64,000 bases of DNA from Marchantia polymorpha subsp. ruderalis (taxonomy: Eukaryota; Streptophyta; Marchantiopsida; Marchantiales; Marchantiaceae). The notes under the pieces were generated by a model. The model worked only from the letters and a program-made list of their open reading frames with translations. It had not been told where the DNA came from and ran no database searches. Position numbers and translations under genes: made by a program. Positions within the stretch are counted from its first letter, which is position 1. Each line of letters opens with the position of its first letter. Location: assembly GCA_037833965.1 (NCBI GenBank), contig AP031356.1:20730501-20794500 (forward strand), in the 5' to 3' direction. This document shows positions 20,801-57,181 of this stretch, in pieces.

Positions 20801-20923
20801 ATCTCCCGTGCGACGACGTCGAGAATGTTCCGCAGCCAGCAGATGGATGCGCGCAGCGCGCACAAGAGATTGGAATCGCGAATTCAAGAATGGGACGTTC
20901 TCCGCCGCCCGGTCGAAGGTCAT
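17801..20923 (-). pseudogene. LTR ORF of B, one in-frame TAG
   Basis: The family 1 protein is readable over its full length in a single frame except for a TAG at 19,066-19,064, where K and C have CAG-CAA-CAG; B has also lost one codon there. The upstream piece is 619 codons and covers the N-terminal domain and most of the Pro-rich middle; the remainder holds the acidic segment, coiled coil and C-terminus. The TAG is followed by ACG, not a CAR-YYA context, so readthrough is not expected. The sequence is very close to C and K, so the lesion looks young. Confidence 0.85.
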
Positions 20924-21159
20924 GGTCGGCTCTTGGTCGTGAAGAACGTCTCACTTGAAGGCCGCGCCGGCTGTACGCTGGAACGGTCTTCGCTCTCACG
21001 CGCGGCTTCACGCTCCGCCGTCGTCGATTAAACTCTCACGCTCGAATTGGCGGATTTGAACTCCGCGAGCGTGTCACCCTGCGGACATGGGGGCGTAGCG
21101 TCGAAGGCGAGTTTTCCGCCTTGCGCGGTACACTTGTTCGTACCGCCCGTCGGCCAATC

Positions 21160-21700
21160 TCCCTCTGCCTTGACGCGTGTGTCCGCATGTCGGACAAAAA
21201 TTCAACTCCTGCCTGTGCGCAGGCAGGAGCCTCGGCGGATTCTCCGCCGGTGCGGAACCTCATCCTCCTGTGCACAGGCGTTCGCCTGTGCGCAGGCGAA
21301 TTCCTTCCGCGGCGCTGCGCTGGCGCGGAAGGCGTTGACCGTGGTCAGCCGTCTCCGTCCAGTCTGTCCGTTCCTTGTCTCTCCGTCGGCGCTTCCGCCG
21401 CCGCAACTCCGTCCGTCCAAGAGCGCATCCACCCGTGCCGTCCGCATGGTCCGTACCGATTGGATTATTCTGGCGGTCTTCCGACGTACGCGGCGCCGCG
21501 CTGGCGCGGAAGGCGCCGTACACTTTCTACCTCACAAGGCGCATCTCTAGGGCCCAAGGCGGATTTTCCGCCGACGCCGAAGTGCCTGTGCACAGGCGAA
21601 CTTCGCGCCTTCCCTAACCCTACTTCGCCTGTGCACAGGCGAACGCCTTCGTCCGCGCATAGGACAAAACTTGATTCCCCCTTCCGCGTAGGCGGAATTC
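21160..21700. repeat. Palindrome-rich section of LTR B
   Basis: Inverted copy of the array in C, with GCCTGTGCACAGGC units near 21,271, 21,590 and 21,627 and GCGC-type inverted repeats between them. Confidence 0.7.
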
Positions 21701-22152
21701 GCGCCGGTGGCGAACTCCTTCCGCCGTAGGCGACCGCCTCCGTTTCTTCCAGTAGTGATAACTCCCTAAGTGCTCGTCCGTTCCAAGCGTTCTTGGGCTC
21801 GTTGGAATCACTGCGTCGAGATCTTTCCAACAGGATCCTAACTTGGTCAAGGCGCCCGAGGGTTGACCTAATTACGGGGGTTTCCCTACAGCCGCGGACG
21901 CAACCTCCGAAGGCGGGTTTTGCGCCTTGCGCCGTAGAGATCCTAACTGCAGAGCTCGCAGGGAGGGTGGTGCCCGTCCTTACTGCGGCACCCCAAATCC
22001 CAGATTCTACAAGATCCCTCGAGAATCCCCGCGATCTTCCGGATTCACTCTGTTTTGATGTACCGAAGGCTATTTACAATGCTGCCAAGGTACAGTTTTC
22101 CAAAAATGTTTTCATTTCCTCAAAATTGCCAAAAGTGGGGTACCACACGTGA

Positions 22153-25102
22153 TTTGGAATTGAGGGCGATTAGAGTTTGCCGAGAGAGAAAGGAGCTCGG
22201 GCGGTGCGGAAGTAGAATGAGCGGGCGAGCGAACCCCAGGAACGCAATGACGAGACCGGGCAGATTGCGGATGGTGCCACTTCGCCTACCACAGAACGGA
22301 CTGCGCGCTTTCGAGGAGCGCTTAATAGCAAGAAAGCTCGATTTCTTGCTATGGGGATGGAACTACATCTGTGCGAATATGGTGCGCGAGTGGCTAGAGT
22401 CACAGGGACCACCCTCGCGCGGATTGCGTCCGCATGTTGATCGGTGGACAGTCCAAGATTGGGCGCAGGCGTTGGGAAGATGTGCTGGCATGCCAGGGCA
22501 TCTCCTTTTCGACACTGAGAGCATCAAGGTGACCAAGCAGGAAGAGGCGCAATTTGTGGAGCTGTTCAAGACCGGGAGGTCTACCAAGAATGGGTACAGG
22601 ACCCGTGATTACAAGGATCGATTTCGCCGGACTTTGTCCGCGGCGCTGATGCAATTACTGCAGCCACACCGCGCCTGCTACATCACATTGTGGCAGGTCT
22701 CTTTTGTGGAGTGCGTCATCGAGGGAACTCCAATTCACTGGGCGAGCATCCTGCACAGGGTGATGCGACAGCACGCTTTTGAGGAGAAGGGGGGAACTCT
22801 AAACCATCTTTCTCCTTTCCTCATCAATTTTTATCGACAGCGGAATTGTTTGACAGCGGCGGAGCTTGAGCATTTTCCGCCATTGTCCGTCGACCATCCC
22901 GGGAAGTATGTGCGGGAGAATGAGGTCGACACTGATGCAGAGGAGTCACCGACTTCTACCCCATCAAGGCGGAGGGACGAAGGGAGAAACACTCCTGCAG
23001 CACGAGTGCCGCGGAAGCGGCGATGGAGAGAAGAGTCCGAAGAGGAGCAGCATCAAGAACCCTCTGCTCCCATTCGACCGCGGCCGCTGTACGAGTCATA
23101 CAGCCGGCCGAAGCAGAAGGCACGCAGACTGGTGTTACCAGCCGACAGTGCGGACACGGCGACGATTGCGACGGAGGAAGGAAGTGCGTCGCCAGAGAAG
23201 CATGAGGAAGCGCGGACGACCGCAGGAGCAACGGGTCACGCTGCAACCTCGACGGGAGAGAGGCCGCCTACGGGCCAAGGGCCTCCGGAGTTACCACGTG
23301 CGTTGCGGACGGATGTTCCGTTTGAGCACAGACGAGACTCCGCGGACGGACGAGCCTCCGCGGACAGGCGATCACAAGTGGACGTGGATCTACGCTTACG
23401 CGTGGGAAGGAGCAGTCCGCCTGTGCACAGGACACCTCCACACGTGCCGCCTGTGCACAGGCAAGAATCACCCCCGTTCCAACGTAGGAAGGGGAAGGAG
23501 CCGGCGGAAGAACCGCCTACGAGACACCGGCCCTCGGGGCCAGACCCTCCGGCGCACCACGCGCCGCAATTTGCGCCTTCGGCGCCAGGGCCTTCGAGCC
23601 GAGGAGATACGAGCAGGGAGCGTGCGGAGGCCGCACCATCGGCGGGTAGTCCGCCGATAGATGCGCCTTCGGCGGTAGGGCCTATAGGCCAAGGGACATC
23701 GGGCGAGCGGCCCCCGGCCATGTCGCCTTTGGCGATGGATGTCCGCGGCGCTACGCCTGCGGCGGACAAGGCGCCGGCATTTGCGCCTGCGCACAGGCCG
23801 AGCACAGCCCCCACGGACCGATCAAGGGAGCAGCAACAGACGGAGGAGCGGAGTGACTGTCCGCGGGATGAAATTTCGATGCGCGATGCGCAATCAAACC
23901 CCGCGCAGCCACTCTCCGCTCAATCGCCTTCGGCGGCGGGCGTCGGCGGCAGAGAGGACACGGTAGACGACCAACAAGCGAGCGGCGGGGATGCCGCACG
24001 GGCACATTCGCCTACCGCCTTAGACATTTTGGCGAAGAGCAGCGAGGCTGCAGCCGTGCCTTCGCAGGCAGCACACGTCGACGACGTGCAGCCCCACTCG
24101 GGGCAGTCGCCGACGCAATCAATGGCGACTGAAATTCTCCACTCAGATGATGACGACGGAGGCTCCACCGAAGAAATGTCAGGAGCAGAGGACACCGAGG
24201 AGGAGGAGGAGGAAATTGTTGGAGCGCCGGCGGCGGCGCTCTCTGAGCAGGTGATTCCGTTGCTGAGGTACTTGGATCGCAAGGTCGATAAATACGCCGA
24301 CCCACTTCAGCCGGGATCTTACATCGAGTTAGTGCGCAGGCGGACTCGCACTAAAGTCCACACCAGCAAGCTGTTAGCTAGAGTGGACCAGGAGTTGAGG
24401 GAATTGAAGGAGAAGCATGCATGCTTGTGGGGTCAGTATAAACTTAATCAGAAATTCTACAAGTACTCCGAGAAGGTGAAGGATGAGAAACTGGACGAGC
24501 TCACCAAGGAGCAGGTGAAGGTCAAGGAAGCACTTATTTCTGAGCAGGCCCAGAATCGGATTTTGTCAGAGGAGCTCGTGCGACAGACGCGGTTGTTGGA
24601 ACAATGTCAGCTCGCACGGCAGGCGGATGAGGAGTTAATCCGCAGGTTACAGTCAGAGTGTGGCGAATTGAGAGCGCAACGTGCTGAGGCCGAATCGCAA
24701 TTAGTGATAATTGAAGAGGATCGCACGAAGGAGGCGGATCGCACGAAGGTGGAGACGGCGAGGCGTGTCGCCCACTGTCTCAAGGGCTACGCCCACTGGG
24801 AAGTGAAGGCGCAGGAGAAACTCACACTGCGTGAGTTTGAATTGCGCGCAGCCGGGTTGTTGTCAGGCGACAGTAGGAGTCGGCGGAAGGTAGCAAAGAA
24901 GCTCGATGCTTTTCTGTCGAAGACGCAGGATACCATGTCCGCCCTCGAAGTGGAGGTGTCCGCGGCGTTGCAGCGCTTGGAACTGCGCAGTCGAGCGGAA
25001 GATTGGCAGCGTAGGGAGTTAGTGCGCGGCAGTCCGCCGCGCAGGAGACGTAGTACAGGTTCCGCGGAGTGTAGTGTAGCGTGGTTCCGTGCAGGCGTGT
25101 AG
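22153..25102 (+). pseudogene. LTR ORF of C, main part, open to its stop (family 1)
   Basis: Resumes in phase with 16,635-16,792 and runs to the stop without lesions. It contains the conserved domain (LRMVPLRLPQ to EVDTDAEE), the Pro/Arg-rich middle with PVHR motifs encoded by palindromes, an acidic run (DTEEEEEE), the QVIPLLRYLDRK block, a coiled coil of ~120 residues and the basic tail (RRRRSTGSAECS). A continuous frame also extends left to 22,055 inside LTR B, giving a 1,015-codon chimera that is accidental. The product is unknown. Confidence 0.85.
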
Positions 25103-25136
25103 CGTAGTGCAGTGTAGTGTTAGTTAGGACTTAGAA

Positions 25137-25167
25137 GGTATAAAATAGTTCCAGGCGTTTTGCTTGG
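25137..25167 (+). promoter_or_regulatory. LTR core promoter of C: TATA box and hairpin
   Basis: GGTATAAAATA at 25,137-25,147, then CCAGGC-GTTTT-GCTTGG at 25,151-25,167 with a G-T wobble pair in the stem. Confidence 0.7.
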
Positions 25168-26114
25168 GGTTCTTTCCCATCAGAAGTGCAGATCAGGAAC
25201 CCATTTCCTTTGCGTGTTTGTGTCCTTGAGTTCTGTCACCACGCACGAGGAGTTACAACTTAGCGTTCCGCATTTTGTAGCTGAAGGCCTTCGGCCGAAT
25301 GTTCAGAGCTAGTACATTGGTTAGAGACTTGAGTAGTTCGGAACTGCACCTGCGGGTGACTGCCGATGCTCAGAGCCAGTGACTAGTTAGATACTTGAAC
25401 AGTTTCGCCCCTACACCTTCGAGTGTTTCTTTCTGATTGTACTCCTTTGGGATTTTTCCCCTGAATGCCAAAGTGAAGTTTTGCTACTTCGTGTAAGCCT
25501 TGGTTGTAAATTCAGGTTACGCTGCAGCAGGTGCCTTGAGGGTAACCCCTGTAGTATTTCTGGGAATGACAAGTGCCTGAGAAATCAAACTCTTCAATAG
25601 ACTGTTGTTGTGTTACTGGAATGTTTCACAGTGAGTCCTTCAGTGCGGACCTGTGTTCTCTGCGCGTTTTGTGAGTTGAGAGTGTTGTTCACCGCGTATG
25701 AGTGACTTTGATCCGAAGTAGGCAGTCCAAACCGGGTTTTCTACGCTAGCAGCAAGCTAGTGGAAGTGTTGTAAAAGCCGGAGTTGGAAGTCACTACCCG
25801 CAGCTTCGCCGAGTGTGCTCGCGAGAGACTTTCCCCCCCTGAAATCTTGAGTAGAGGTCCTAACGGATCTCTGGGTTGTGTTTCTATAGTTTCAGGTGTG
25901 TGTGTGTGTGTTACGCTGCACTGTGCGACCTCCGAGTGCGCTCCGAGTGGACACTTGCAGTATTTCTGGGAGTGACAGTTGCCTGAGAATTCAAACTCCT
26001 CAATAGTCTGTTAAAACGTGACACTTTGTACCCTATGTGTTCCTCTGTCCCTGTGGGTTCGACCTTTCTACCACTATATTGCTGTTTTAGCCTTTAGTGG
26101 GTTATTACAAGGGG

Positions 26115-28959
26115 GAATTAGCGGGCAAGCTAATTTCAAGAACGCAATGTCGAAGCTGAACAGATTGCGGATGCTGCCGCTCCGGCTTCCACAAAACGGG
26201 CTGCGTGCCTACGAGGAACGGCTGATTGCAAGAAAGCTCGATTTCTTGCTGTGGGGATGGAATTACATTTGTGTGGACATGGTGCGCGAATGGCTGGAAC
26301 CACAGCGACCACCTACGTGTGGATTGCATCCGCATGTCGATCAGTGGACCGTCCAAGATTGGGCGCAGGCATTGGGGAGGTGTGCCGGCATCGACGGGTA
26401 CCTTCTCTTTGATAGTGAGAGCGTCAAGGTGTCGAAGCAAGACGAGGCGCAATTTGTGGAATTGTTCAAGCGGGAGAGGTCTACCAAGAATGGGTACAAG
26501 ACCCGCGACTACAAAGATCGCTTCCGCCGAACTTTAGCGGCGGCGCTGCTGCAGTTGCTGCAGCCACACCGCACCTCCTACATCACCTTGTGGCAGGTTT
26601 CTTTTGTGGAGCTCATCTTGGAGGGAGCTCAAGTTCACTAGGCGAGCATCATGCACAGAGTGATGCGACAGCACGCATTCGAGGAGAAGGGGGGAACTCT
26701 CAATCATCTCTCCTCTTTCTTGATCAATTTCTATCGACAGAGGAACTGTCTGACCGCGGCGGAGCTTGCTCGCTTTCCGCCATTGTCCGTCGACCATCCC
26801 GTGAAGTATGTGTGGGATAACGAGGTCGACACCGATGCAGAGGACTCACCAGCTTCTACTCCGCCGACACGGAGGGTCGAGGGAAGAAGCACACCCGCAG
26901 CAAGAGTGCCGCGGAAGCGTCGATGGAGAGAGGAGTCCGAGGAGGAGCAGCATCGAGGACCCACTGCTCTCATACAACAGCGGCCACTACACGAAGTGTG
27001 CAGCCGGCCGAAGCAGAAGGCGCGCAGGCTTGTGTTACCAGCCAGCAGCGCGGACACGGCGACGATCGCCACGGAGAAGGGAAGTGCGTCGCCGGAGAGG
27101 ATCGAGAGAGCGCGCACGTCCGCAGGAGCGACGGACCACGCTACACCTCCGACGGACGAGAGGCGGCCTTCGGTCCAAGGGCCTCCGGAGTTACCACGTG
27201 CGATGCGGACGAGTGTTCCGCCTATGCATAGGCGAGTTTCAGCAGAAAGGCGACCTCAAGCGGACGTGGACCTCTGCCTACGCGTAGGCAGAGAAAGTTC
27301 GCCTACGCACAGGCGGCCGCCTACGCACAGGCAGGATTCACCCCCGATACAACGTAGGAAGGGGAAGGAGCCGGCGGAAGATCCGCCTTCGGGTCAAGGG
27401 CCTTCGGGACCAGACCCTCCGCCGTACAACGCGCCGCGATTTGCGCCTTCGGCGCCAGGGCCTTCGGGTCAACGAGTTTTGAGCAGGGAGCGTGCGGAGA
27501 CCGCACCTCCGGCGTATAACCCGCCGGCAGATGCGACTTCGGCGGTAGGGCCTTCAGGGCTAGGGACATCGGGCGAGCGGCCTCCGGCTCTATCGCCTTC
27601 GGCGCTGCGCCTGCGGCGGACAAGGCGCCGGTATTTGCGCCTACGCACAGGCCAGACGCAGCCCTCGCGCAGGACCGATCGAGGGAGCATGACCTAACAG
27701 AGGAGCGGATTGTCTGTCCGTGGGACGAAATTCGGGTGCGCGATGCGCAATTACACCTCGCGCAGACACATTCCGCTCGACCACCTTCGGCGGCGGACGT
27801 CGGCGGCGAAGAGGACACAGTCGACGATCGACAGGCGGGTGATGGGGATGTAGCACGACCACATTCACCCACCGCCTTGGACATTTTAGCGGGGAGCAGT
27901 GAAGCTGCAGGAGTGCCTTCGGAGGCAGCACCCGTAGACAACTCGAAGCCCCACTCGGGTCAGTCGGCAACGCAATCAATGGCGATCGAAATCCTTCCCT
28001 CGGATGATGACGAAGGAGGCTCCACAGAAGCAATGTTGGGATCGGGAGACACCGAGGAGGAGGAGGAGGTAATTGTTAGAGCGCTGGCGGCGGCGCTCTC
28101 TGAGCAGGTAATACCTCTGCTGAGGTACTTGGATCGCAAATTTGATAAATACGCCGATCCACTCCAGCCGGGGTCCTACATCGAGTTAGTGCGCAGGCGG
28201 ACTCGCACTAAAGTCCACACCAGCAAGCTACTAGCTAGGGTGGACCGGGAGCTGAAGGATTTGCGGGAGAAGCATGAATGCTTGTGGGGACAGTATAATC
28301 TCGTGCGGAAGACGCACACCCACTACGACACATTGAAGAAGGCGAGACTGGAAGAGCTCACCAGGGATGTGGTGAAGACCATGACGGATTTGATGTCTGA
28401 GAAAACTCAGAATCAGATTCTGTCAGAGGAGCTCGTGCGATAGACGCGTTTGTTGGCGGAGTGTCAGCTCGCACGGTAGGCGGATGAGGATTTAATCCGC
28501 AGGCTACAGTCAGAGTGTGGCGAATTGAGAGCGCAACGTGCGGAGGCCGAATCGCAGTTAGTGGTAATTGAAGAGGATCGCAGGCGAGAGGCATATCGCA
28601 CGAAGGAGGAGATGGCGAGGCGTGTCGCCCACTGTCTCAAGGGCTATGCCCACTGGGAAGTGGCGGCGCAGGAGAAACTCACACTGCGTGAGTTTGAACT
28701 TCGCGCAGCAGGGTTGTTGGCAGGCGACAGCAAGAGTCGGCGGAAGGTAGCGAAGAAGCTAGACGTTTTTCTGTCAAAGGCGCGGGATACCATGTCCACC
28801 CTCGAGGTGGAGGTGTCCGCGGCGTTGCAGCGGTTGGGACTGCGCAGTCGAGCGGAAGACTGGCAGGGTAGGGAGTTAGTGCGCGGCAGTCCGCCGCGCA
28901 AGAGACGTAGCACAGGTTCCGCGGAGTGTAGTGTAGCGTGGTTCCGTGCGGGCGTGTAG
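26115..28959 (+). pseudogene. LTR ORF of D, main part, several lesions
   Basis: Clearly the family 1 protein: the conserved domain from 26,148, the Pro-rich middle with PTHR motifs, an acidic run, and a coiled coil to 28,959. A TAG at 26,639-26,641 replaces a Trp codon, a frameshift lies between about 27,690 and 27,740, and TAG codons occur at 28,441 and 28,479. The last two are identical in I, which points to a shared defective ancestor. Confidence 0.85.
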
Positions 28960-28993
28960 CGTAGTGCAGTGTAGTGCTAGTTAGGATTTAGAA

Positions 28994-29024
28994 GGTATAA
29001 AATAGTTCAAGGCGTTTTGCCTTG
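28994..29024 (+). promoter_or_regulatory. LTR core promoter of D: TATA box and hairpin
   Basis: GGTATAAAATA at 28,994-29,004, then CAAGGC-GTTTT-GCCTTG at 29,008-29,024. Relative to B, C and K, the second base pair has changed on both arms. Confidence 0.7.
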
Positions 29025-30430
29025 GGTTCTTTCCCAATTTCAGAAGTATAGATCAGGAACTCATTTTCTCTGCGTGTTCGTGCCCTTAGTTCTGTCACCA
29101 CGCACGAGGGGCTACACCTTAGCGTTCCGCATTGTGTAGCTGAAGGCCTTCGGCCGAATGTTCAGAGCTAGTACATTGGTTAGAGACTTCAGTAGTTCGG
29201 ATCTACACCTGCGGGTGACTGCCGATGCTTAGAGCCAGTGACTAGTTAGATACTTGAATAGTTTTGCCCCTACACCTTCGAGTGTCTGTTTCTGATTGTA
29301 CTCCTTCGGGATTTTTCCCCTGAATGCCAAAGTGAAGTTTTGCTACTTTGTGTAAGCCTTGGTTGTAAATTCAGGTTACGTTGAAGCAGGTGCCTTGAGG
29401 GTAGCCCATGTAGTATTTCTGGGAATGACAAGTGCCTGAGAATTCAAACTCTTCAATAGACTGTTGTTGTGTTACTGGAATGTTTCTCAGTGAGTCCTTC
29501 AGTGCGGACCTGTGTTCTCTACGCGTTTTGTGAGTTGAGAGTGTTGTTCACCGCGTATGAGTGACTTCGATCCGAAGTAGGCAGTCCAAACCGGGTTTTC
29601 TACGCTAGCAGCAAGCTAGTGGAAGTGTTGTAAAAGCCGGAGTTGGAAGTCACTACCCGCAGCTTCGCTGAGTACTTGCGAGAGACTTTTCCCCTCTGAA
29701 ATCTTGAGTAGAGGTCCTAACGGATCTCTGGGTTGTGTTTTTGTAGTTTCAAGTGTGTGTGTGTGTGTGTGTGTGTGTTACGCTGCACTGTGCGACCTCC
29801 GAGTGCGCCCCGAGTGGACACTTGCAGTATTTATGGGAGTGACAGTCGCCTGAGAATTCAAACTCCTCAATAGTCTGTTAAACGTGACACTTTGTACCCT
29901 GTGTGTTCCTCTGTCCCTGTGGGTTCGACCTTTCTACCACTATATTGCAGTTTTAGCCTTTATTGGGTTATTACACGGACACTCTCAGAATTACTCAAAA
30001 TGTAACTCTGCACATTCTCCTTGAATACGGGAACAACATTCGACTTGGTATTTTTCTTTTGTTGGTTTGAATTTTGAATCAGGATGTTTTGCCTTTTACT
30101 TGGCTGTCCGTCAATAGTTTATATCTATTACCTTCGTTTTATGTAAGTAAAATTTCATCTACGGAATTTCACGTTCCCTAAACCACACACAGATTGGAAG
30201 AGACTGGCGAGTCTTTACTCATTTGTGCGTGTCCTCTAACTCAGGAGAAAGAGATGCACGAAGTCTTTGCAAACAGGTGAAGTTCTATGTAGAGATGATT
30301 GACAACATTTCATCTTCCTATCCGCAGAAGGCTGTTATTGTCGGTGCATCTATAATATCAATTTTGTCAAAAGTATATGCCTCTCTGCTTCTTCAGTACA
30401 AAGACGTACTCATCCAGAATACAACAATGC

Positions 30431-37281: not shown

Positions 37282-37895
37282 TGTAATAACCCACTAAAGG
37301 CTAAAACTGCAATATAGTGGTAGAAAGGTCGAACCCACAGGGACAGAGGAACACACAGGGTACAAAGTGTCACATTTAACAGACTATTGAGAAGTTTGAA
37401 TTCTCAGGCGACTGTCACTCCCAGAAATACTGCAAGTGTTCACTCGGAGCTCACTCGGAGGTTGTGTGGTAACACACTTTTTGTTTTTTTTGCAGAATTT
37501 AAACAATTTTAGAAAACTAGTACCAAAGCAGTGTTTGTAGCTAGAGAAGGGTACGCTAAATAGAGTGGATTGGTGATATCGTCACGAGGGCACAAAGAAT
37601 CACGTAGTCGGATGTACCAACGCCAACGTCTTCGACGCCTTCGGCAAAAGCTCCTTTTCTGAGGTGTCTCTACTCACGCGCCTCCAGCGTATAAGGAAGC
37701 TACGCTTCCGGCGCAGACACCTAAGGAGGAGGTTTTGCTAAAGACGTCAGGAGAAGGGCCCAGACCTCTAAAGGCGTCCGACCATGAGTGCGCCTTCGGC
37801 GAAGCGCCGCTAGCGCGGAAAGGGGAAACCTTCATAACGATCGGGATACACGGTAGATCCAGTTGGTTGAAGTTGCATTAGAAAGAGCTCGGGAC

Positions 37896-37911
37896 GCTCG
37901 TTCTAACGAGT
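37896..37911. promoter_or_regulatory. Conserved 16-bp near-palindrome in LTR G
   Basis: GCTCGTTCTAACGAGT, one arm mismatch. Confidence 0.4.
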
Positions 37912-38731
37912 CCAAGAGCGTCGGAGATGGATCAGGAATGGAGAAGTTATGAGCGTCGGAAAACTCGTAGCCGGACATGCGCCGTTCGCGCTAGGGTTCA
38001 CAGCCGGAAAGGATTCCCGTACGCCCTCGGCGATGCGCCTTCGGCGGAATCACGCGCTCATAGGAGGAAACCAACTCAGAGTCGGAAGCGCCTTTGGCGG
38101 CTGTTCATGGAAGGAAAGCGCCGGTCGGATGTACGCCTCCGACGTGGCGCTGACGGCCGGATGCGCTGGCATGAGTTGCGCTGACGGATATGCGCCGGCA
38201 GCAACGGACGAGGCATAAAGGACAAAATAGGCGGTACGACTGCGCGCCGGCGTAATTCGCCCCGACTGGATGTGCGCCTCCAGCAAGGCGCCGACGGATA
38301 ATGAACGCACCAGCGGCGACACGCCTCCGGTGAGGGACGGGTTAGGAAAAGACAACAGGGCCGACGTATACCCTGCAGCGGACTCGAGTCCGGAAGGTGG
38401 CGGCGGCGGGAGAATTCAACGTTTAAGCATGCGAATGCGCGCAGTGCGGAGACGTGAATTCGCGCATGCAAAGGGCGAACCGTTAAGCCGTATAGCCGGC
38501 TGCGTACGTTGCAACCAGTAAGAACGTTGGACGTTCTTGAAATCGGAGAAGAAAAGACTGCGCTCCAGTCTCATTTTCTCATTCTTGACTTTGCAATTTC
38601 CAGTTTCCAAGATTACGCGCAAGGGCGGAGCGACCTGCAGTGAGAGTAGAGAGTGCGGAGACGAGTTGCGCAAGGATCTTGGCGGACCTTGAAAGAATTG
38701 CGAGTAGCGATCTTGAACGAGCGCAGAGAGA

Positions 38732-41377
38732 GTGAGCAGTCAGTGCTTGAGTGGCCGACGCGCAGTGGCGATTGTGAGAGAGCGAGCGAAAGGAAGAACG
38801 TTTGTGTGTGCAGGCAACGCAATGTCGAAGGTTCCCCAGCTGCGAGTGTCTCCACTCAGGGTGCCGCAGATCGGTCTACGCGCATTTCAAGATGTGCTGT
38901 TGAGGCTGAAGCTCGATTTTCTCCTATGGGGGTGGAACTGGACATGTCCGGAGATGGTGCGCGAGTATCTGCAGGAGAGACACAAGCCTTCTCGCGGATT
39001 CCGCCCACACCCAGAGAGATGGGACATTTGCAATTGGGCGCAGGTGTTGGGCAGGTGTGCCGGCGAGGAAGGGGATCTCCTCTTCGAGGCCGATAGCGTG
39101 AAGGTGTCCCAGGAGGAAGAAGTCTCTTACAATGAGCTCTTCAAAGTTGCCAGACATCCCAAGAACGGTTTCCGGACACGGGATTACAAGGATCGATTGC
39201 GGAGAAATGTCGCGACGGCATTGCTGCAGATATTGCAGCCGACCAAGACCGCTTACATGCATGGTTGGCAGGTAGAGTTTGTGGAGCTAGTGTTGTCAGG
39301 AGCTCCGGTGCATTGGGCACGGCTCCTGTGGAAGGTGACGCGCCAACATGCGCAAGAAGAGAAGGGAGGAACCCTCAATCATCTATCGCCTTACTTAATC
39401 GTGTTTTACCGGGCGATGGGATGTTTGACAAATGCTGAGAAAACACGGTTTCCGCAGCTGACCCGGACTTATCCAGGTAGATATTCGAGGGAGGCCGAAG
39501 TAGACACGGATCCGGACGAGGAACCTGCCAGTACGCCTCCGGCTCCGGCTCCAGCAAGAGCAGCAGAAGAACGTCGAAGTGAGCGCATTCCGCGAAAGCG
39601 GAAGTGGGATGAGAGACCTGAGGACAGGCAGCCGGAAGTGCCAGCTGCGCCGACTCGTGGTCGGCCCACCCCCGAGCCTCACAGTCGACCAAAACAGAGG
39701 ACACGCAAAATGCCAACTGGTACTGAGGAGACCGGGCGAACTCCGACCCGGCGGAATCTCACACAGGAAGAGATAATCGCTCAGATTCTAGGGAAGACGG
39801 CAGATACCTCTGCACAGAAGGCACCACGGCCTTCGGGAGGAGATGGACGGACTGACAGCCGGCCGACTGCGAGTCGGATGACTGAAGGTCGACAAGCGGA
39901 AGGAAGGCCAACTGAACGGCGCGTTGAACCGGACAGCAGGCCGGAAGCAGAAGAGAGTTTGGCTGACGAGCCAACAATCCTCAGAGGGTCGTCTTCGGCG
40001 GAAGGCACTTCTGGAAGAACGCCACCAGCAAGCAGGCCAAGTGGAGTCAAAACGCGCAGGGTGTATCCGACTCCCAGTCGGACAACTACTGGTCGGCCGA
40101 CTGCGAGTCGGACAACAGAGAGTCAGCCGGATCCGCCGACTGCGAGACGGATGGGGCCAACGACCAGTGTGCGGACGCCTTCGGCGGACGCACCTTCAGC
40201 AAGGACACCTTCCGCGCAGATTGCGCCGGAAGGACAGGCAGCAGAAGCGGGCGGTGCAAGAGTGACAAAAGTCACTGCGGCGTCGACCCCTTCACAAACC
40301 GAAGATCGAGCCGGAACAGGGGCTCAAGCAGTGGGATCTCCCACTGCCCTGGATATTTTAGCAGGCAGTGGAGCAGCAGTCGCAGCGGAAGCTGCTGCGC
40401 GCCACAGTTCCAGGGAGTCGCCAAGGGATTCGGTGGCGACTGAAATCCTCGAGACTGAGGATGATACGAGCTCGGAAGAGCAGGAAGCGGATTCGGTGCA
40501 GAAAACGCCAACAGGGGTGTTGTGCGAACAGATAGTTCCACTCCTGCGATATCTGGATCGCAAGACATCCAAATACGCAAGTGCCTTAAAACCGCAGTCT
40601 TATGTGGAGACTATCAGGCGAAGGACGAGGATCAAGGTGGCAAAGTGGGCCTCTAGTTGCCAAGTATATGTGGATAGGAACACCGCCCTCCGACAACACC
40701 TGGCGGTCACCCAGAAGCTATACCAAGCCTTGCAGCAGCAGAAGGAGGATGCGGCGACGAAAAGTCAGGCGGATGCCGAACTAATACGGGCAAAGATCGA
40801 GTCGGAATTGCAGGAGGAGCGGAGACAGAACCAAGACCTAGCAGCCGAGCTTGCGCGCCAGACGCGCGCCTTAGAAGAAAGTCAAAGAGCCCGCAAGGAG
40901 GATGAGGAGTTGTTGTGCAACTTGCAATCCGAGTGCTCGGATTTGAGGGCACAACGTGCGGGATTAGAAATGCAGCTGGCTGAGGTGGAGAGCAGCTGCA
41001 GGGCGCGAGGAGAGTTGGCGGCACAGGTGACTCGTTGTCTAAAAGGATACGCCCATTGGGAGGTGGCAGCTCAAGAGAGGATTACACTCCGGGAGTTCGA
41101 GCTTCGGGCGGCGGCATTGACGGAGGGTGACAGTCGGAGTCGGCGGCGAGTGGCGAGAAAATTAGAAACCTTCTTGTCGGGTGCGCGCGACACTATGGCG
41201 CACTTGCAGTCGGAAGTCACCACAGCGCTCCGACGCCTGGGGTTACGCAGCCGGTCGGAAGACTGGCAAGGTAGAGATAGTAAGCGGAGCAGTCCGGCGC
41301 GCAGGAGGCGCAGCACCGGATCTGCTGAGTGCAGTAGAGTAGTTTGGTTTCGCGCAGATGCTGCGAGTGGTAGATAG
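38732..41377 (+). CDS. LTR-encoded protein, family 2 (881 aa), unknown function
   Basis: Open frame inside solo LTR G, nearly identical to the 906-aa protein of E from the MSKVPQLRVSPLRVPQ start onward. The first ~30 codons are out of phase with E because G has four extra bases near 38,790. The in-frame ATG at 38,822 (MSKVPQ) is therefore the most likely real start, giving 851 aa. It contains the conserved N-terminal domain, a disordered Pro/Arg/Thr-rich middle with PTASR repeats from CCGACTGCGAGTCGG palindromes, the QIVPLLRYLDRK block, a Gln/Glu-rich coiled coil and the conserved GYAHWEV...FELRAA block. It ends 33 bases before the TATA box. No known domain. Confidence 0.8.
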   Translation: MSSQCLSGRRAVAIVRERAKGRTFVCAGNAMSKVPQLRVSPLRVPQIGLRAFQDVLLRLKLDFLLWGWNWTCPEMVREYLQERHKPSRGFRPHPERWDICNWAQVLGRCAGEEGDLLFEADSVKVSQEEEVSYNELFKVARHPKNGFRTRDYKDRLRRNVATALLQILQPTKTAYMHGWQVEFVELVLSGAPVHWARLLWKVTRQHAQEEKGGTLNHLSPYLIVFYRAMGCLTNAEKTRFPQLTRTYPGRYSREAEVDTDPDEEPASTPPAPAPARAAEERRSERIPRKRKWDERPEDRQPEVPAAPTRGRPTPEPHSRPKQRTRKMPTGTEETGRTPTRRNLTQEEIIAQILGKTADTSAQKAPRPSGGDGRTDSRPTASRMTEGRQAEGRPTERRVEPDSRPEAEESLADEPTILRGSSSAEGTSGRTPPASRPSGVKTRRVYPTPSRTTTGRPTASRTTESQPDPPTARRMGPTTSVRTPSADAPSARTPSAQIAPEGQAAEAGGARVTKVTAASTPSQTEDRAGTGAQAVGSPTALDILAGSGAAVAAEAAARHSSRESPRDSVATEILETEDDTSSEEQEADSVQKTPTGVLCEQIVPLLRYLDRKTSKYASALKPQSYVETIRRRTRIKVAKWASSCQVYVDRNTALRQHLAVTQKLYQALQQQKEDAATKSQADAELIRAKIESELQEERRQNQDLAAELARQTRALEESQRARKEDEELLCNLQSECSDLRAQRAGLEMQLAEVESSCRARGELAAQVTRCLKGYAHWEVAAQERITLREFELRAAALTEGDSRSRRRVARKLETFLSGARDTMAHLQSEVTTALRRLGLRSRSEDWQGRDSKRSSPARRRRSTGSAECSRVVWFRADAASGR

Positions 41378-41410
41378 GATAGCGTAGTGCTAGTTAGGAT
41401 CTTTTGAGAG

Positions 41411-41439
41411 TATAAAGTAGATCAAGGCGTTTTGCCTTG
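41411..41439 (+). promoter_or_regulatory. LTR core promoter of G: TATA box and hairpin
   Basis: TATAAAGTAG at 41,411-41,420, then CAAGGC-GTTTT-GCCTTG at 41,423-41,439. Confidence 0.7.
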
Positions 41440-43094
41440 GGACTCTTCCAGTTTCGGAAGTGCAGATCAGGAACTCACTTTCTTGGCGTGTTTGTGCATT
41501 TTGGTCCTGGCACCACGTAGAGAAGCTGCAGCATAGCGAAGTTACCGTATGTTGTAGTTGAAGGCCTTCGGCTGAATGTTCAGAGCTAGCACCCGGTTAG
41601 AGACTTGAGTAGTGCGGATCTGCACCTGCGGGTGATTTCTGATGCTCAGAGCCGGCTGCGAGTTAGAGACTTGAACAGTTCCCCCTTACTCCTTCGAGTG
41701 ACATATCCTGATTGTACTCCTACGGGAAGTTTCCCCTGAATGCCAATGTGAAGTTTCATTACTTCGTGTAAACCTTGGTTTGTAATTCAGGTTGTGTGTG
41801 TGTTACTGGATCGTGTTTTCAGTAAGTTCTCAGTTGGGTCTGCACTCCCTGCGTTCGGTGTGATAGTCGAGGGTGACGTCCACGGCGTATGTAGAGGCTT
41901 CGTTCCGAAGTGGAAAGTCCAGTCCGGGTACCCCCGCTAGTTCCTGGCGGAAGGGCAGTAAAAGCCGGAGTGGGAGGCACTACCTGCAGAACCTCTGAGT
42001 GAACTTGTGAGACACTTTCCTCCTGAAATCCGAAGCGGAGGTCCTGACCGACCTCCGAGTTGTGCTTTTTGCCAATTTCAGGTGTGTGTGTGTGTTGAGT
42101 GACCACGCTGTACCGTGCATCCTCCGAGCATCCTCCGAGTCGAGATCCTCCTCCGAGTCGAGCCTCCGAGTCGAGCACTGCAGTATTTCTGGGAGTGACA
42201 GTCGCCTAGAATTCAAACTCTACAAAAGTCTGTTAAACGTGACACTTTTACTCTGTGTGTTGCCTCTGTCCCTGTGGGTTCGATCTTTTTACCACCATAC
42301 TGCAGTTTTAGCCTTTGGTGGGTTATTACAGGTTGCACAGTGCAGCGTACAACACACACACACACACCTAAAACTACAGAAACACATCCCAGAGATCGGT
42401 TAGGACCTCTACTCAAGATTTCAGGGGGAAAGTCTCTCACGAGTACTCAGCGAAGCTACGGGTAGTGACTCCCAACTCCGGCTTTTACAACCCTTTCACT
42501 AGCTTTCTGCTAGCGTAGGGAACCCGGTTTGGACTTCCTACTTCGGATCAAAGTCACTCACACGCGGTGAACAACACTCTCAACTCACAAAATGCGCAGA
42601 GAACACAGGTCCGCACGGAGGTACTCAACTTAGAAACGATCCAGTAACACACCATAACAGTCTATTGAAGAGTTTGAATTCTTAGGGACTTGTCATTCCC
42701 AGAAATACTACAGGGGTTACCCTGAAGGCACCTGCTGCAGCGTAACCTGAATTTACAACCAAGGCTTACACGAAGTAGCAAAACTTCACTTTGACATTAA
42801 GGGGAAAAATCCCGAAGGAGTACAATCAGGAACAGTCACTCAAAAGTGTAAGGGGGAAACTGTCCAAGTATCTAACTCGTAATTGGCTCTGAGCATTCGC
42901 AATCACCCGCAGGTGTAGATCCGAACTACTCAAGTCTCTAACCAGCGTACTAGCTCTGAACATTCGGCCGAAGGCCTTCAGCTACACAATGCGGACCGCC
43001 AAGGTGTAGCTCCTCTTGCGTGGTGACAGAACTAAGGACACAAACACGTAGAGAAAATGGTTCCTAATCTGCAATTCCGAAACTGGAAAAATCC

Positions 43095-52804: not shown

Positions 52805-53745
52805 TGTAATAACCCACTAAAGGCTAAAACTGCAATATAGTGGTAGAAAGGTCGAACCCACAGGGACAGAGGAACACACAGGGTACAAAGTGTCACGTTT
52901 TAACAGACTATTGAGGAGTTTGAATTCTCAGGCGACTGTCACTCCCAGAAATACTGCAAGTGTCCACTCGGAGCGCACTCGGAGGTCGCACAGTGCAGCG
53001 TAACACACACACACACACCTGAAACTACAGAAACACAACCCAGAGATCCGTTAGGACCTCTACTTCAAGATTTCAGGGGGAAAGTCTCTCAAGAGTACAC
53101 TCTGCGAAGCTGCGGGTAGTGACTTCCAACTCCGGCTTTTACAACACTTCCACCAGCTTGCTGCTAGTGTAGGAAACCCGGTTTGGACTGCCTACTTCGG
53201 ATCGAAGTCACTCAGACGCGGTGAACAACACTCTCAACTCACAAAACGCGCAGAGAACACAGGTCCGCACTGAAGGACTCACTGAGAAACATTCCAGTAA
53301 CACAACAACAGTCTATTGAAGAGTTTGAATTCTCAGGCACTTGTCATTCCCAGAAATACTACAGGGGTTACCCTCAAGGCACCTGCTGCAGCGTAACCTG
53401 AATTTACAACCAAGGCTTACACGAAGTAGCAAAACTTCACTTTGGCATTCAGGGGAAAAATCCCAAGGGAGTACAATCAGAAAGGAACACTCGAAGGTGT
53501 AGGGGCGAAACTGTTCAAGTATCTAACTAGTCACTGGCTCTGAGCATCGGCAGTCACCCGCAGGTGCAGATCCGAACTACTCAAGTCTCTAACCAATGGA
53601 CTAGCTCTGAACATTCGGCCGAAGGCCTTCAGCTACAAAATGCGGAACGCTAAGTTGTAACTCCTCGTGCGTGGTGACAGAACTCAAGGACACAAACACG
53701 CAAAGGAAATGGGTTCCTGATCTATACTTCTGATGGGAAAGAACC

Positions 53746-53776
53746 CCAGGCAAAACGCCTGGAACTATTTTATACC
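53746..53776 (-). promoter_or_regulatory. LTR core promoter of K 3' LTR: TATA box and hairpin
   Basis: GGTATAAAATA (53,776-53,766), then CCAGGC-GTTTT-GCCTGG (53,762-53,746). Confidence 0.7.
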
Positions 53777-53810
53777 TTCTAAGTCCTACTTAGCACTACA
53801 CTGCACTACG

Positions 53811-56800
53811 CTACACGCCTGCACGGAACCACGCTACACTACACTCCGCGGAACCTGTACTACGTCTCCTGCGCGGCCGACTGCCGCGCACTAACTCCCT
53901 ACCCTGCCAATCTTCCGCTCGACTGCGCAGTCCCAAACGCTGCAACGCCGCGGACACCTCCACTTCGAGGGCGGACATGGTATCCTGTGCCTTCGACAGA
54001 AAGGCATCGAGCTTCTTTGCTACCTTCCGCCGACTCCTACTGTCGCCTGACAACAACCCGGCTGCGCGTAATTCAAACTCACGCAGTGTGAGTTTCTCCT
54101 GCGCCTTCACTTCCCAGTGGGCGTAGCCCTTGAGACAGTGGGCGACACGCCTCGCCGTTTCCACCTTCGTGCGATTCGCCTCCTTCCTGCGATCCTCTTC
54201 AATTATCACTAATTGTGATTCGGCTTCAGCACGTTGCGCTCTCAATTCGCCACACTCTGACTGTAACCTGCGGATTAACTCTTCATCCGCCTGCCGTGCG
54301 AGCTGACATTGTTCCAACAACCGCGTCTGTCGCACGAGCTCCTCTGACAAAATCTGATTCTGGGCCTGCTCAGAAATGAGTGCTTCCTTGACCTTCACCT
54401 GCTCCTTGGTGAGCTCGTCCAGTTTCTCATCCTTCATCTTCTCGGAGTGCTTGTAGAATTTCTGATTAAGTTTGTACTGACCCCACAAGCATGCATGCTT
54501 CTCCTTCAATTCCCTCAACTCCTGGTCCACTCTAGCTAATAGCTTGCTGGTGTGGACTTTAGTGCGAGTCCGCCTGCGCACTAACTCGATGTAAGATCCC
54601 GGCTGGAGTGGGTCGGCGTATTTATCGACCTTGCGATCCAAGTACCTCAGCAACGGAATCACCTGCTCAGAGAGCGCCGCCGCCGGCGCTCCAACAATTT
54701 CCTCCTCCTCCTCCTCGGTGTCTTCTGCTCCTGACATTTCTTCCGTGGAGCCCCTGTCGTCATCATCCGAGTGGAGAATTTCAGTCGCCATTGATTGTGT
54801 CGGCGACTGCCCCGAGTGGGGCTGCACGTCGTCGACGTGTGCTGCCTGCGAAGGCACGGCTGCAGCCTCGCTGCTCGTCGCCAAAATGTCTAAGGCGGAA
54901 GGCGAATGTACCCGTGCGGCATCCCCGTCGCTTGCTTGTTGGTTGCCTACCGCGTCCTCTCTGCCGCCGTCGCTCGCCGCCGAAGGCGATCGAGCGGAAG
55001 GTGGCTGCGCGGGGTTTGATTGCGCATCGCGCATCGAAATTTCATCCCGCGGACAGTCACTCCGCTCCTCCGTCTGTTGCTGCTCCCTTGATCGGTCCGT
55101 GGGGGCTGTGCCCGGCCCGTGCGCAGGCGCAATTGCCGGCGCCTTGTCCGCCGCAGGCGTAGCGCCGCGGACATCCATCGCCGAAGGCGACATGGCCGGG
55201 GGCCGCTCGCCCGATGTCCCTTGGCCTATAGGCCCTACCGCCGAAGGCGCATCTATCGGCGGACTTCCCGCCGATGGTGCGGGCTCCGCACGCTCCCTGC
55301 TCGTATCTCCTCGGCTCGAAGGCCCTGGCGCCGAAGGCGCAAATTGCGGCGCGTGGTGCGCCGGAGGGTCTGGCCCCGAGGGCCGGTGTCTCGTAGGCGG
55401 TTCTTCCGCCGGCTCCTTCCCCTTCCTACGTTGGAACGGGGGTGATTCTTGCCTGTGCACAGGCGGCACGTGTGGAGGTGTCCTGTGCACAGGCGGACTG
55501 CTCCTTCCCACGCGTAAGCGTAGATCCACGTCCACTTGTGATCGCCTGTCCGCGGAGGCTCGTCCGTCCGCGGAGGCTCGTCTGACCTGGCCGTCCGCGT
55601 GCACAGGCGGCACGTGTGGAGGTGTCCTGTGCACAGGCGACCTGTGCACAGGTGAGCGCCTGTGCACAGGCGGACTGCTCCGTCCCACGCGTAAGCGTAG
55701 ATCCACGTCCACTTGTGATCGCCTGTCCGCGGAGGCTCGTCTGTGCGCAAACGGAACCTCTGTCCGCATCGCACGCGGTAACTCCGGAGGCCCTTGGCCC
55801 GTAGGCGGTCTCTCTCCCGACGAGGTTGCAGCGGGGCCCGTTGCTCCTGCGGTCGTCCGCGCTTCCTCATGCTTCTCTGGCGACGCACTTCCTTTCTCCG
55901 TCGCAATCGTCGCCGTGTCCGCACTGTCGGCTGGTAACACCAGTCTGCGTGCCTTCTGCTTCGGCCGGCTGTATGGCTCGCACAGCGGCCGCGGTCGAAT
56001 GGGAGCAGAGGGTTCTTGATGCTGCTCCTCTTCCGACTCTTCCCTCCATCGCCGCTTCCGCGGCACTCGTGCTGCAGGAGTGTGTCTCCCTTCGTCCCTT
56101 CGCCTTGATGGGGTAGAAGTCGGTGACTCCTCTGCATCAGTGTCGACCTCATTCTCCCGCACATACTTCCCGGGATGGTCGATGGACAATGGCGGAAAAT
56201 GCTCAAGCTCCGCCGCTGTCAAACAATTCCGCTGTCGATAAAAATTGATGAGGAAAGGAGAGAGATGGTTTAGAGTTCCCCCCTTCTCCTCAAACGCGTG
56301 CTGTCGCATCACCCTGTGCAGGATGCTCGCCCAGTGAATTGGAGTTCCCTTGATGACGCACTCCACAAAAGAGACCTGCCACAATGTGATGTAGCAGGCG
56401 CGGTGCGGCTGCAGTAATTGCATCAGCGCCGCGGACAAAGTCCGGCGAAATCGATCCTTGTAATCACGGGTCCTGTACCCATTCTTGGTAGACCTCCCGG
56501 TCTTGAACAGCTCCACAAATTGCGCCTCTTCTTGCTTGGTCACCTTGATGCTCTCACTGTCGAAAAGGAGATGCCCTGGCATGCCAGCACATCTTCCCAA
56601 CGCCTGCGCCCAATCTTGGACTGTCCACCGGTCAACATGCGGACGCAATCCGCGCGAGGGTGGTCCCTGTGGCTCTAGCCACTCGCGCACCATATTCGCA
56701 CAGATGTAGTTCCATCCCCATAGCAAGAAATCGAGCTTTCTTGCTATTAAGCGCTCCTCGAAAGCGCGCAGCCCGTTCTGTGGCAGGCGAAGTGGCACCA

Positions 56801-57077
56801 TCCGCAATCTGCTCGGTCTCGTCATTGCGTTTCTGGGGTTCGCTCGCCCGCTCATTCTACTTCCGCACCGCCCGGGTTTCTTTCTCTCTCGGCAAACTCT
56901 AATCGCTCTCAATTCCAAATCACGCGCACTCACTTCTCCCTCAATCAACAAGAAATCTCCTGTGCGACGACGTCGAGAATGTTCCGCAGCCAGCAGATGG
57001 ATGCGCGCAGCGCGCACAAGAGATTGGAATCGCGAATTCAAGAATGGGACGTTCTCCGCCGCCCGGTCGAAGGTCAT
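53811..57077 (-). CDS. LTR-encoded protein, family 1 (1088 aa), unknown function
   Basis: The longest intact copy. Residues ~91-310 are the conserved domain (LRMVPLRLPQNGLRAF; KLDFLLWGWNYIC; WTVQDWAQALGRCAG; RTRDYKDRFRR; ITLWQVSFVE; GGTLNHLSPFLINFYR; EVDTDAEE). Residues ~315-770 are Pro/Arg/Ala-rich and probably disordered. A basic KRRWREESEEEQ motif sits near 341, and PVHR repeats are encoded by GTGCAC palindromes. Residues ~785-793 are acidic, ~805-840 hold QVIPLLRYLDRK, ~848-970 form a coiled coil, ~975-1050 are a conserved C-terminal block, and the tail is basic. Residues ~448-490 are imperfectly repeated at ~500-542. The ORF starts at the ATG shared by B, C, D, I and J and stops 35 bases before TATA. 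No family is recognised; oligomerisation through the coiled coil is likely. Confidence 0.82.
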   Translation of the reverse strand: MTFDRAAENVPFLNSRFQSLVRAARIHLLAAEHSRRRRTGDFLLIEGEVSARDLELRAIRVCRERKKPGRCGSRMSGRANPRNAMTRPSRLRMVPLRLPQNGLRAFEERLIARKLDFLLWGWNYICANMVREWLEPQGPPSRGLRPHVDRWTVQDWAQALGRCAGMPGHLLFDSESIKVTKQEEAQFVELFKTGRSTKNGYRTRDYKDRFRRTLSAALMQLLQPHRACYITLWQVSFVECVIKGTPIHWASILHRVMRQHAFEEKGGTLNHLSPFLINFYRQRNCLTAAELEHFPPLSIDHPGKYVRENEVDTDAEESPTSTPSRRRDEGRHTPAARVPRKRRWREESEEEQHQEPSAPIRPRPLCEPYSRPKQKARRLVLPADSADTATIATEKGSASPEKHEEARTTAGATGPAATSSGERPPTGQGPPELPRAMRTEVPFAHRRASADRRSQVDVDLRLRVGRSSPPVHRRSPVHRSPVHRTPPHVPPVHADGQVRRASADGRASADRRSQVDVDLRLRVGRSSPPVHRTPPHVPPVHRQESPPFQRRKGKEPAEEPPTRHRPSGPDPPAHHAPQFAPSAPGPSSRGDTSRERAEPAPSAGSPPIDAPSAVGPIGQGTSGERPPAMSPSAMDVRGATPAADKAPAIAPAHGPGTAPTDRSREQQQTEERSDCPRDEISMRDAQSNPAQPPSARSPSAASDGGREDAVGNQQASDGDAARVHSPSALDILATSSEAAAVPSQAAHVDDVQPHSGQSPTQSMATEILHSDDDDRGSTEEMSGAEDTEEEEEEIVGAPAAALSEQVIPLLRYLDRKVDKYADPLQPGSYIELVRRRTRTKVHTSKLLARVDQELRELKEKHACLWGQYKLNQKFYKHSEKMKDEKLDELTKEQVKVKEALISEQAQNQILSEELVRQTRLLEQCQLARQADEELIRRLQSECGELRAQRAEAESQLVIIEEDRRKEANRTKVETARRVAHCLKGYAHWEVKAQEKLTLREFELRAAGLLSGDSRSRRKVAKKLDAFLSKAQDTMSALEVEVSAALQRLGLRSRAEDWQGRELVRGSRPRRRRSTGSAECSVAWFRAGV

Positions 57078-57181
57078 GGTCGGCTCCTGCTCGTGAAGAA
57101 CGTCTCACTTGATGGCCGCGCCGGCTGTACGCTGGAACGGTCTTCGCTCTCACGCGCGGCTTCACGCTCCGCCGTCGTCGA

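What the first reader, a model, noticed from the sequence alone, without database searches (positions are those of the whole stretch)
37465..42330. Giant LTRs carry a ~900-1,090-codon gene in U3
Solo LTR G runs from TGTGGTAAC to TTATTACA with a perfect 5-bp duplication (ggttg), and an 881-codon ORF lies wholly inside it. B, C and D independently give the same boundaries with cgtga, agggg and cggac. In full elements E and K the ORF adjoins the LTR promoter of the 5' LTR, and in K it is in both LTRs. U3 is therefore ~4 kb and coding, comparable in layout to sag of mouse mammary tumour virus. I know of no plant gypsy element described with a protein this long in its LTR.
Basis: partly seen in the sequence, partly recalled or inferred. 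Interest (0 to 1): 0.92.

Follow-up and report, generated by a model that had tools for sequence, protein, structure and literature searches.

The report
Liverwort jumping gene with LTR-encoded protein
In the liverwort Marchantia polymorpha a large family of Ty3/gypsy-type jumping genes carries a conserved protein-coding gene of about 850-1,090 codons inside its terminal repeats, so even many lone leftover repeats still carry the gene; we found no description of this layout in plants, and the protein's job is unknown.

Summary
The window lies in a 241-Mb Marchantia polymorpha assembly. G (37465-42330) is a 4,866-bp solo LTR with a perfect 5-bp target duplication and an ORF of 851 codons from its ATG (881 from a GTG). 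Six complete elements were resolved: five elsewhere in the genome, and E, whose 3' LTR lies just left of the window. All six carry the ORF in both LTRs (one copy has a stop), a PBS after the 5' LTR, a polypurine tract right before the 3' LTR, and matching 5-bp duplications. LTR pairs differ by 1-30 bases in about 4.9 kb. Pol stops 37 nt before the 3' LTR. In LTRs sampled without regard to the ORF, the ORF shows purifying selection: 1 indel against 19 outside it; nonsynonymous/synonymous 105/119 against 117/54 expected (p about 2e-11). The protein is basic, NLS-like, without a transmembrane segment or usable Pfam/PDB relative; all named relatives are from Marchantia. Best reading: a third gene captured into U3 of a Tat/Athila-like gypsy lineage, encoding a nuclear accessory protein; expression and function are inferred. 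Ten paper searches found no plant precedent.

The parts
37465..42330 (+). Solo LTR G, 4,866 bp, TGTGGTAAC...TTATTACA
37460..37464 (.). 5-bp target-site duplication GGTTG, left copy
42331..42335 (.). 5-bp target-site duplication GGTTG, right copy
38822..41377 (+). U3 ORF of G: 851 codons from ATG plus stop (open back to GTG 38732: 881 codons)
38822..39556 (+). N-terminal conserved module of the ORF (about 245 aa), predicted mostly helical at low confidence; no Pfam or PDB match
40505..41374 (+). C-terminal conserved module: LCEQ..PLLRYLDRK motif, then a 233-residue proline-free stretch and an Arg-rich tail
41411..41416 (+). TATAAA box, 33 bp after the ORF stop; TATAAA present in 8 of 8 window LTR tails that cover this point
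41822..41827 (+). GTAAGT splice-donor-like site downstream of the TATA box (GTRAGT in 8 of 9 tails aligned); untested
   Evidence: function inferred
5762..13079 (-). 5' LTR of complete element E, interrupted by the ORF-less LTR 6485-8931
9174..11729 (-). U3 ORF in E's 5' LTR, 851 codons from ATG, no stop inside
5722..5739 (-). PBS of E (TGGCGCCGCTGCCGGGGA), 22 nt after the LTR; tRNA-Asp type only by recall
2841..5678 (-). gag-protease ORF of E (Retrotrans_gag, zinc knuckles, weak Asp protease match)
6485..8931 (-). ORF-less 2,447-bp LTR inserted in E's 5' LTR, duplication ATCCG
16793..22147 (-). Solo LTR B, duplication CGTGA; its ORF is split into two frames
15392..26109 (+). Solo LTR C (halves 15392-16792 and 22153-26109, B between), duplication AGGGG; no stop in the ORF part right of B
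13943..29975 (+). Solo LTR D (halves 13943-15391 and 26115-29975, C between), duplication CGGAC; longest frame 348 codons
53811..57077 (-). 1,088-codon U3 ORF in K's truncated 3' LTR
52805..57281 (-). K 3' LTR, lacking its first ~1 kb and the PPT (joined to the integrase region at 57281)
57182..62678 (-). gag-protease, RT, RNase H and integrase frames of K
62765..64000 (-). Start of K's 5' LTR (cut by the window end; continues in L055, longest frame there 767 codons)

Best explanation
This is a non-chromovirus (Tat/Athila-like) Ty3/gypsy retrotransposon family of Marchantia polymorpha in which a third gene lies in the LTR. Order: U3(ORF)-TATA-R-U5-PBS-gag-pol-PPT-U3(ORF)-TATA-R-U5. Shown: the ORF is in both LTRs of complete, recently inserted elements, is kept in solo LTRs, and is under purifying selection. 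Inferred: the ORF arose as a sense third gene downstream of pol, and a polypurine tract formed just after the pol stop put it inside U3, so that reverse transcription copies it into both ends. It is expressed either from the 3' end of the genomic RNA as a spliced message, or from a promoter in the first 1.36 kb of U3, which would make every LTR a gene unit of its own. The product is most likely a nuclear accessory protein (basic, NLS-like PRKRKW, long Pro/Ser/Ala-rich linker, helical-looking C-terminus) that regulates the element's own transcription, silencing escape or integration. It is not an envelope.
For: Structure: five complete elements, plus E, with matching 5-bp duplications, PBS, PPT and the ORF in both LTRs; 10 of 30 loci are solo LTRs with duplications, 8 distinct insertions; pol stops 37 nt before the 3' LTR in the 4 copies read. 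The K type has ORF matches at 42 scored places, and a shorter solo LTR of that type (L053, 4,565 bp, CTTTC on both sides) has a 777-codon ORF. Youth: LTR pairs differ by 1/4870, 1/4900, 3/4866, 7/4866 and 30/4866; E by 3/4148 plus 0/723. Selection: of 12 3' LTRs taken by their PPT junction only, 7 have exactly the 851-codon ORF. In 8 of those 12 plus G there is 1 ORF indel against 19 elsewhere, N/S 105/119 against 117/54 expected from the noncoding spectrum, p about 2e-11, and 0 stop substitutions against 6.9 expected. Between subfamilies, N-domain dN/dS is 0.14-0.20 in three pairs. Protein: pI 9.5, maximum 19-residue hydropathy 1.22, PRKR[KR]W cluster shared by G, E and K.
Against: No RNA or protein evidence was available, so expression is unproven. 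Function rests on composition only: Pfam and PDB sequence gave nothing usable, both structure models are poor (mean pLDDT 45.7 and 51.2), and Foldseek found no match with E up to 0.001. ORF-less or ORF-deleted LTRs exist (window 6485-8931; L041, L042 and L047 among 12), so the ORF can be done without in cis. One of the ten LTRs of the five pairs has a stop in its ORF (L022). No lineage tree was built. The PPT sample favours young, intact ends.
Confidence: 0.55

Rival explanations
1. The ORF is an envelope-like or movement protein, as proposed for the sense ORFs of Athila-type elements.
For: Same side (sense, downstream of pol) as env-like aORFs (PMC7264820, section 4 read).
Against: No transmembrane-like segment in G, E or K (maximum 19-residue hydropathy 1.12-1.22) and a basic, charged composition; no usable Pfam match.
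Confidence: 0.05
2. The ORF is a second structural (Gag-like) protein or Gag helper used in particle assembly.
For: A helical-looking N-module plus a long proline-free C-terminus could self-assemble (models poor).
Against: The element already has gag with a capsid domain and zinc knuckles; no Gag, capsid or zinc-knuckle match in the ORF.
Confidence: 0.15
3. The ORF lies internally between pol and a shorter 3' LTR; the long 'LTRs' are an artefact of nesting or tandem recombination.
For: K, read alone, looks like this (ORF next to integrase); tandem arrays do occur (PPT spacing 10,657 bp at C4; pairs at C7:1749772 and C4:11304387 have a PPT before both LTRs).
Against: Six elements with matching duplications and the ORF in both LTRs; solo LTRs with duplications at the same boundaries; PPT before TGTGGTAACA at 372 sites.
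Confidence: 0.01
4. The open frame is a by-product of selection on DNA or RNA (GC-rich sequence without stops), not a gene.
For: Noncoding LTR parts vary even less (0.068 per site) than synonymous sites (0.188), so DNA-level constraint may exist in the LTR.
Against: 886 codons against a shuffle maximum of 289; indels avoided, and nonsynonymous changes avoided relative to synonymous ones; protein similarity between subfamilies whose synonymous sites are near saturation.
Confidence: 0.02
5. The ORF is a host gene captured once and now maintained for the plant (domesticated), with the element only as carrier.
For: Public annotation lists it among plant genes, for example Mp_8g15400.
Against: The genome holds many copies in many subfamilies, some decayed (52, 42 and 84 places scored, out of 11,447-13,713 unconfirmed first-look candidates). 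A single-copy host relative was not specifically searched for; none stood out among the 99 proteins.
Confidence: 0.05

Closest known systems
Additional ORFs (aORFs/eORFs) of plant Ty3/gypsy Tat and Athila elements (Retand, Ogre, Grande, RIRE2, Athila)
   Same: Gypsy elements with an extra gene of unknown function, often downstream of pol; nuclear localisation reported for the Grande protein (passages of PMC11963269 and PMC6317226; abstract and sections 3-4 of PMC7264820).
   Different: Those ORFs are described in the internal region (PMC7264820, PMC11963269). Here the ORF lies past the PPT, inside U3, and so in both LTRs and in solo LTRs. The eORF domains named in PMC6317226 (plant mobile domain, Transposase_28, Athila ORF-1) were not among the Pfam hits.
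Mouse mammary tumour virus sag (recalled, not read)
   Same: A gene wholly inside U3, present in both LTRs, upstream of the LTR promoter.
   Different: Animal retrovirus, protein of about 320 aa and LTR of about 1.3 kb (recalled); no sequence relation found; here 851-1,088 codons, a plant retrotransposon without envelope.
Foamy virus and lentivirus genes that run into U3 (bel/tas, nef; recalled)
   Same: Accessory genes at the 3' end that overlap U3; tas is a nuclear activator of its own LTR, the kind of role proposed here.
   Different: Those begin before the LTR and only partly overlap U3 (recalled); no sequence relation found.
[not shown]
   Same: Reported in Marchantia genomes as Tat elements lacking the additional RNase H; K's pol frames here also show only RT, one RNase H and integrase.

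Membership tests
LTR retrotransposon, Ty3/gypsy | gag, protease, RT-RNase H before integrase, LTR pair with TG..CA, PBS, PPT, short target duplications | tested here: met
   (protease match weak)
Tat/Athila (OTA) superclade of plant gypsy | No chromodomain; PBS not tRNA-Met | tested here: met
   No chromodomain hit in K's frames, though K lacks the end of integrase; in other copies pol ends GTRVNGWRLKKYHV*. PBS TGGCGCCGCTGCCGGGGA; tRNA-Asp assignment and the tRNA-Met PBS are recalled
Tat/Athila (OTA) superclade of plant gypsy | Clustering in RT/INT tree | not tested
   No reference sequences at hand
Tat with additional RNase H | Second (archaeal-type) RNase H domain | tested here: not met
   (K only); agrees with PMC10508981 (none in Marchantia)
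Chromovirus | Chromodomain after integrase | tested here: not met
   the last part of pol in 4 copies was read by eye only, no profile run on it
Plant aORF element as described | Extra ORF in the internal region | tested here: not met
   ORF is past the PPT, inside U3
sag-like layout (gene inside U3 in both LTRs) | ORF wholly in U3, upstream of TATA, in both LTRs of an integrated element | tested here: met
   (layout only, not homology)
Env-like ORF | Transmembrane segment | tested here: not met
   (hydropathy scan of G, E, K)
Transposase_32 (PF20167), suspected from the look of the N-module | Profile match | tested here: inconclusive
   No hit; genome search with the family silent, but so were all 14 control genomes

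The most novel reading that the evidence does not exclude
Every ORF-bearing LTR of this family, solo ones included, is a self-contained gene: promoter in the first 1.4 kb of U3, the ORF, then the R/U5 end signals. Loss of gag-pol by LTR recombination would then not lose the regulator: the many solo LTRs would form a dispersed, element-encoded source of a nuclear protein acting in trans on the family, for example on transcription, silencing or insertion into its own copies. It would have been created by moving the polypurine tract to the end of pol.
Probability: 0.3. Interest if true: 0.88.

Novelty: new variant of a known kind. Interest (0 to 1): 0.74.

Why it matters
Plant retrotransposon extra genes are described between pol and the 3' LTR or elsewhere in the internal region; here the gene is inside the LTR. 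That changes what an LTR is: recombination between LTRs, which normally removes all genes, leaves this one behind in the solo LTR. The family is very common (6,451 LTR 3' ends within two mismatches and 1,106 PBS sites in 241 Mb; not all of these LTRs need carry the ORF) and recently active (LTR pairs with 1 difference in 4.9 kb), in a model plant with easy genetics. It makes testable an old question: what extra ORFs of plant gypsy elements do. It also warns annotators, since public Marchantia annotation lists fragments of this ORF as hypothetical plant proteins.

Tried and rejected
Tried without result: Pfam scans of the ORF and relatives. Best were DUF1690 0.015, Extensin_1 1.9e-4 in 1 of 23 members and CENP-K 0.0018 in 2 of 23, Cu_amine_oxidN3 0.0037 in P0070; I read them as low-complexity, coiled-coil or chance hits. 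A resemblance of the N-module to PF20167, from recall, could not be shown (silent, controls silent too). PDB by profile: 0 matches.

Rejected: the K-based argument (K is rearranged); the env reading; the reading that the ORF is internal. An indel contrast in the 20 LTRs kept from the protein search (0 ORF indels against 40 elsewhere) was set aside because those copies had been found through an intact ORF; the ORF-blind sample was used instead. That sample is 12 of 372 PPT sites, chosen by me from the listed part (+ strand, C1-C4 only). The selection count uses 8 of the 12 plus G; L039 was dropped from the final count as cut and divergent, and L041, L042 and L047 as deleted in or near the ORF. 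With L039 included the indel contrast is 1 against 26.

Full report
What was checked. The window is 64 kb of contig C7 of a 241-Mb, nine-contig assembly. The ORF's named protein relatives are all from Marchantia polymorpha (16 of 16; 14 of 14; 91 of 99, the other 8 being unnamed), so the host is taken to be this liverwort. The region is a pile of nested copies of one group of Ty3/gypsy elements. D contains C, which contains B. To the right, copies with ends at 36321, 37282 (F), 45960 (I), 49793 (H) and 52805 (K) sit in one another, with G inside F (the nesting order is my reading).

The observation. G is 4,866 bp, TGTGGTAACACAC...GGGTTATTACA, with GGTTG on both sides. The LTR has a stop-free stretch of 886 codons; shuffles reach at most 289 in 300 trials. 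From the first ATG (38822) the ORF has 851 codons, the same as in E, in 16 of 20 LTRs and in 7 of 12. It ends 33 bp before TATAAA (41411); all 8 window LTR tails that cover this point have TATAAA there. U3 is thus about 4 kb and mostly coding.

Do both LTRs carry it? A protein search of the own genome scored 52 places of the G type, 42 of them without a stop by my count of the table. Several lie about 10,660 bp apart on one strand. For five such pairs the flanks were read: TCTTC, ATATT, GCACG, ATCCT and TGACT, each identical on both outer sides. The PBS follows the left LTR, and CAATTGAGGAGGGGGGCA (A for one G in one case) directly precedes the right LTR. The LTRs are 4,866-4,900 bp and differ by 1, 1, 3, 7 and 30 bases. 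In four of the five pairs both ORFs are without stops; in the fifth (L022/L011) the left one has a TGA. Two other pairs looked at (C7:1749772 and C4:11304387) turned out to have PPT upstream of both LTRs, that is, tandem arrays. E itself is complete: its right LTR, just left of the window, has the PPT, an 851-codon ORF, and CATAT like the left flank, and the LTRs differ by 3 of 4,148 plus 0 of 723.

Element anatomy. Pol stops 37 nt before the 3' LTR in the 4 copies read, so the internal part is only leader, gag and pol (about 5.8 kb: pair spacing of about 10,660 less an LTR), and the two LTRs are more than half of an element of about 15.5 kb. The PBS sequence occurs 1,106 times, the PPT-LTR junction of the G type 372 times, and the LTR 3' end 6,451 times within two mismatches; reversed-pattern controls gave 0 each. 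Of the 30 G-type loci held, 10 were solo LTRs with duplications (two pairs of these share flanks and are taken as segmental duplicates), 6 were 5' LTRs, 8 were 3' LTRs, 1 had internal junctions on both sides and 5 were unresolved by my script. The K type has ORF matches at 42 scored places, 32 without a stop in the matched parts by my count. Another solo LTR of the TGTGGTACC type (L053, 4,565 bp, CTTTC duplications, 777-codon ORF, TATA downstream) shows the same plan. Of the other three diverged places fetched with it, L051 (439-codon frame, LTR start, TATA) and L054 (738-codon frame, TATA, LTR end) show parts of the plan, and L052 gave no frame of 400 codons. A search with a diverged relative scored 84 places, 41-99% identity among the rows listed.

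Is it a gene? Twelve 3' LTRs were taken by their PPT junction alone: 7 have exactly the 851-codon ORF, one stops at 440 codons, one (L039) is a diverged copy with an 807-codon frame, and three have deletions in or near it. In 8 of these plus G, the ORF (2,556 bp) has 1 indel against 19 in the remaining 2.3 kb. Variable sites in the ORF are 119 synonymous and 105 nonsynonymous, where the noncoding spectrum of the same LTRs predicts 54 and 117 (binomial p about 2e-11), with 0 stops against 6.9 expected. Between subfamilies the N-terminal module has dN/dS 0.14-0.20 (three pairs) with synonymous sites near saturation, while the middle linker is freest. A caution: noncoding LTR parts vary less per site than synonymous sites, so parts of the LTR may be under constraint of their own, and the sample favours young elements.

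The protein. About 95 kDa in G and 122 kDa in K, pI near 9.5; a conserved N-terminal module of about 245 residues, a basic PRKR[KR]W cluster, a variable linker, a conserved LCEQ..PLLRYLDRK motif, and a proline-free stretch of 233-241 residues with an Arg-rich tail; no transmembrane-like segment. Pfam, PDB sequence and fold searches gave no usable relative, and the structure models are too poor to use. So the function is inferred: a nuclear accessory protein of the element is the best guess by composition and by analogy with third genes of retroviruses (recalled), with a Gag helper as the main rival.

How it may be expressed (inferred). The genomic RNA should start after the TATA box, so the 5' copy of the ORF is outside it and only the 3' copy is carried. 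A message could come by splicing from a donor-like GTRAGT downstream of the TATA box (8 of 9 tails) to a site before the ORF, or from a promoter in the 1.36 kb before the ORF. No RNA data were at hand.

Verdict. Real, well supported and unusual: a new variant of a known kind (gypsy element with an extra gene), with the gene in a place known to us only from animal retroviruses (recalled).

Noticed in passing
window 13943-29975 and 36321-64000; loci L001-L030: Strong self-nesting: copies sit in copies many levels deep. Of 17 distinct insertions whose outer flanks were compared with the window's copies, 8 lie inside other copies of the group and one more (L030) touches one on one side, against a rough estimate of 16% of the genome occupied by it (chance p about 0.002 at 15%, 0.01 at 20%, not corrected for clustering in gene-poor regions). 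Could mean targeting of own copies.
   Followed up: partly
window 5762-7207: The ORF-less LTR inserted in E's 5' LTR has a 723-bp tail identical to the host LTR's own tail, but only about 95% identity just upstream; gene conversion or a recombination-borne insertion is possible.
   Followed up: partly
window 57281 and L055: K is a rearranged copy: integrase region joined to U3 about 1 kb inside the LTR, no PPT, and flanks that do not match.
   Followed up: yes
L040, L043-L046, L048-L050 (ORF-blind LTR sample) and G: Noncoding LTR parts vary less per site (0.068) than synonymous sites of the ORF (0.188); unexplained.
   Followed up: no
G000:C4:3412636, 3423293, 3433950: PPT junctions spaced 10,657 bp apart, which suggests tandem LTR-internal-LTR arrays.
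   Followed up: no
L047: A 3' LTR lacking the N-terminal part of the ORF but with a 607-codon open frame starting near the deletion point; may be a variant protein.
   Followed up: no
P0015 (MARPO_0006s0274): A public gene model fuses the middle of this ORF to a gag of another retrotransposon; probably an annotation chimera, though spliced read-through is possible.
   Followed up: no
P0070: An unnamed 484-aa relative (37% identity to the query) with both conserved modules; may come from another liverwort.
   Followed up: no
window 5722-5761, 62725-62764: The PBS lies 22 nt after the LTR end, farther than the 0-5 bases that the survey PMC6317226 used as a rule for one of its PBS tests.
   Followed up: no
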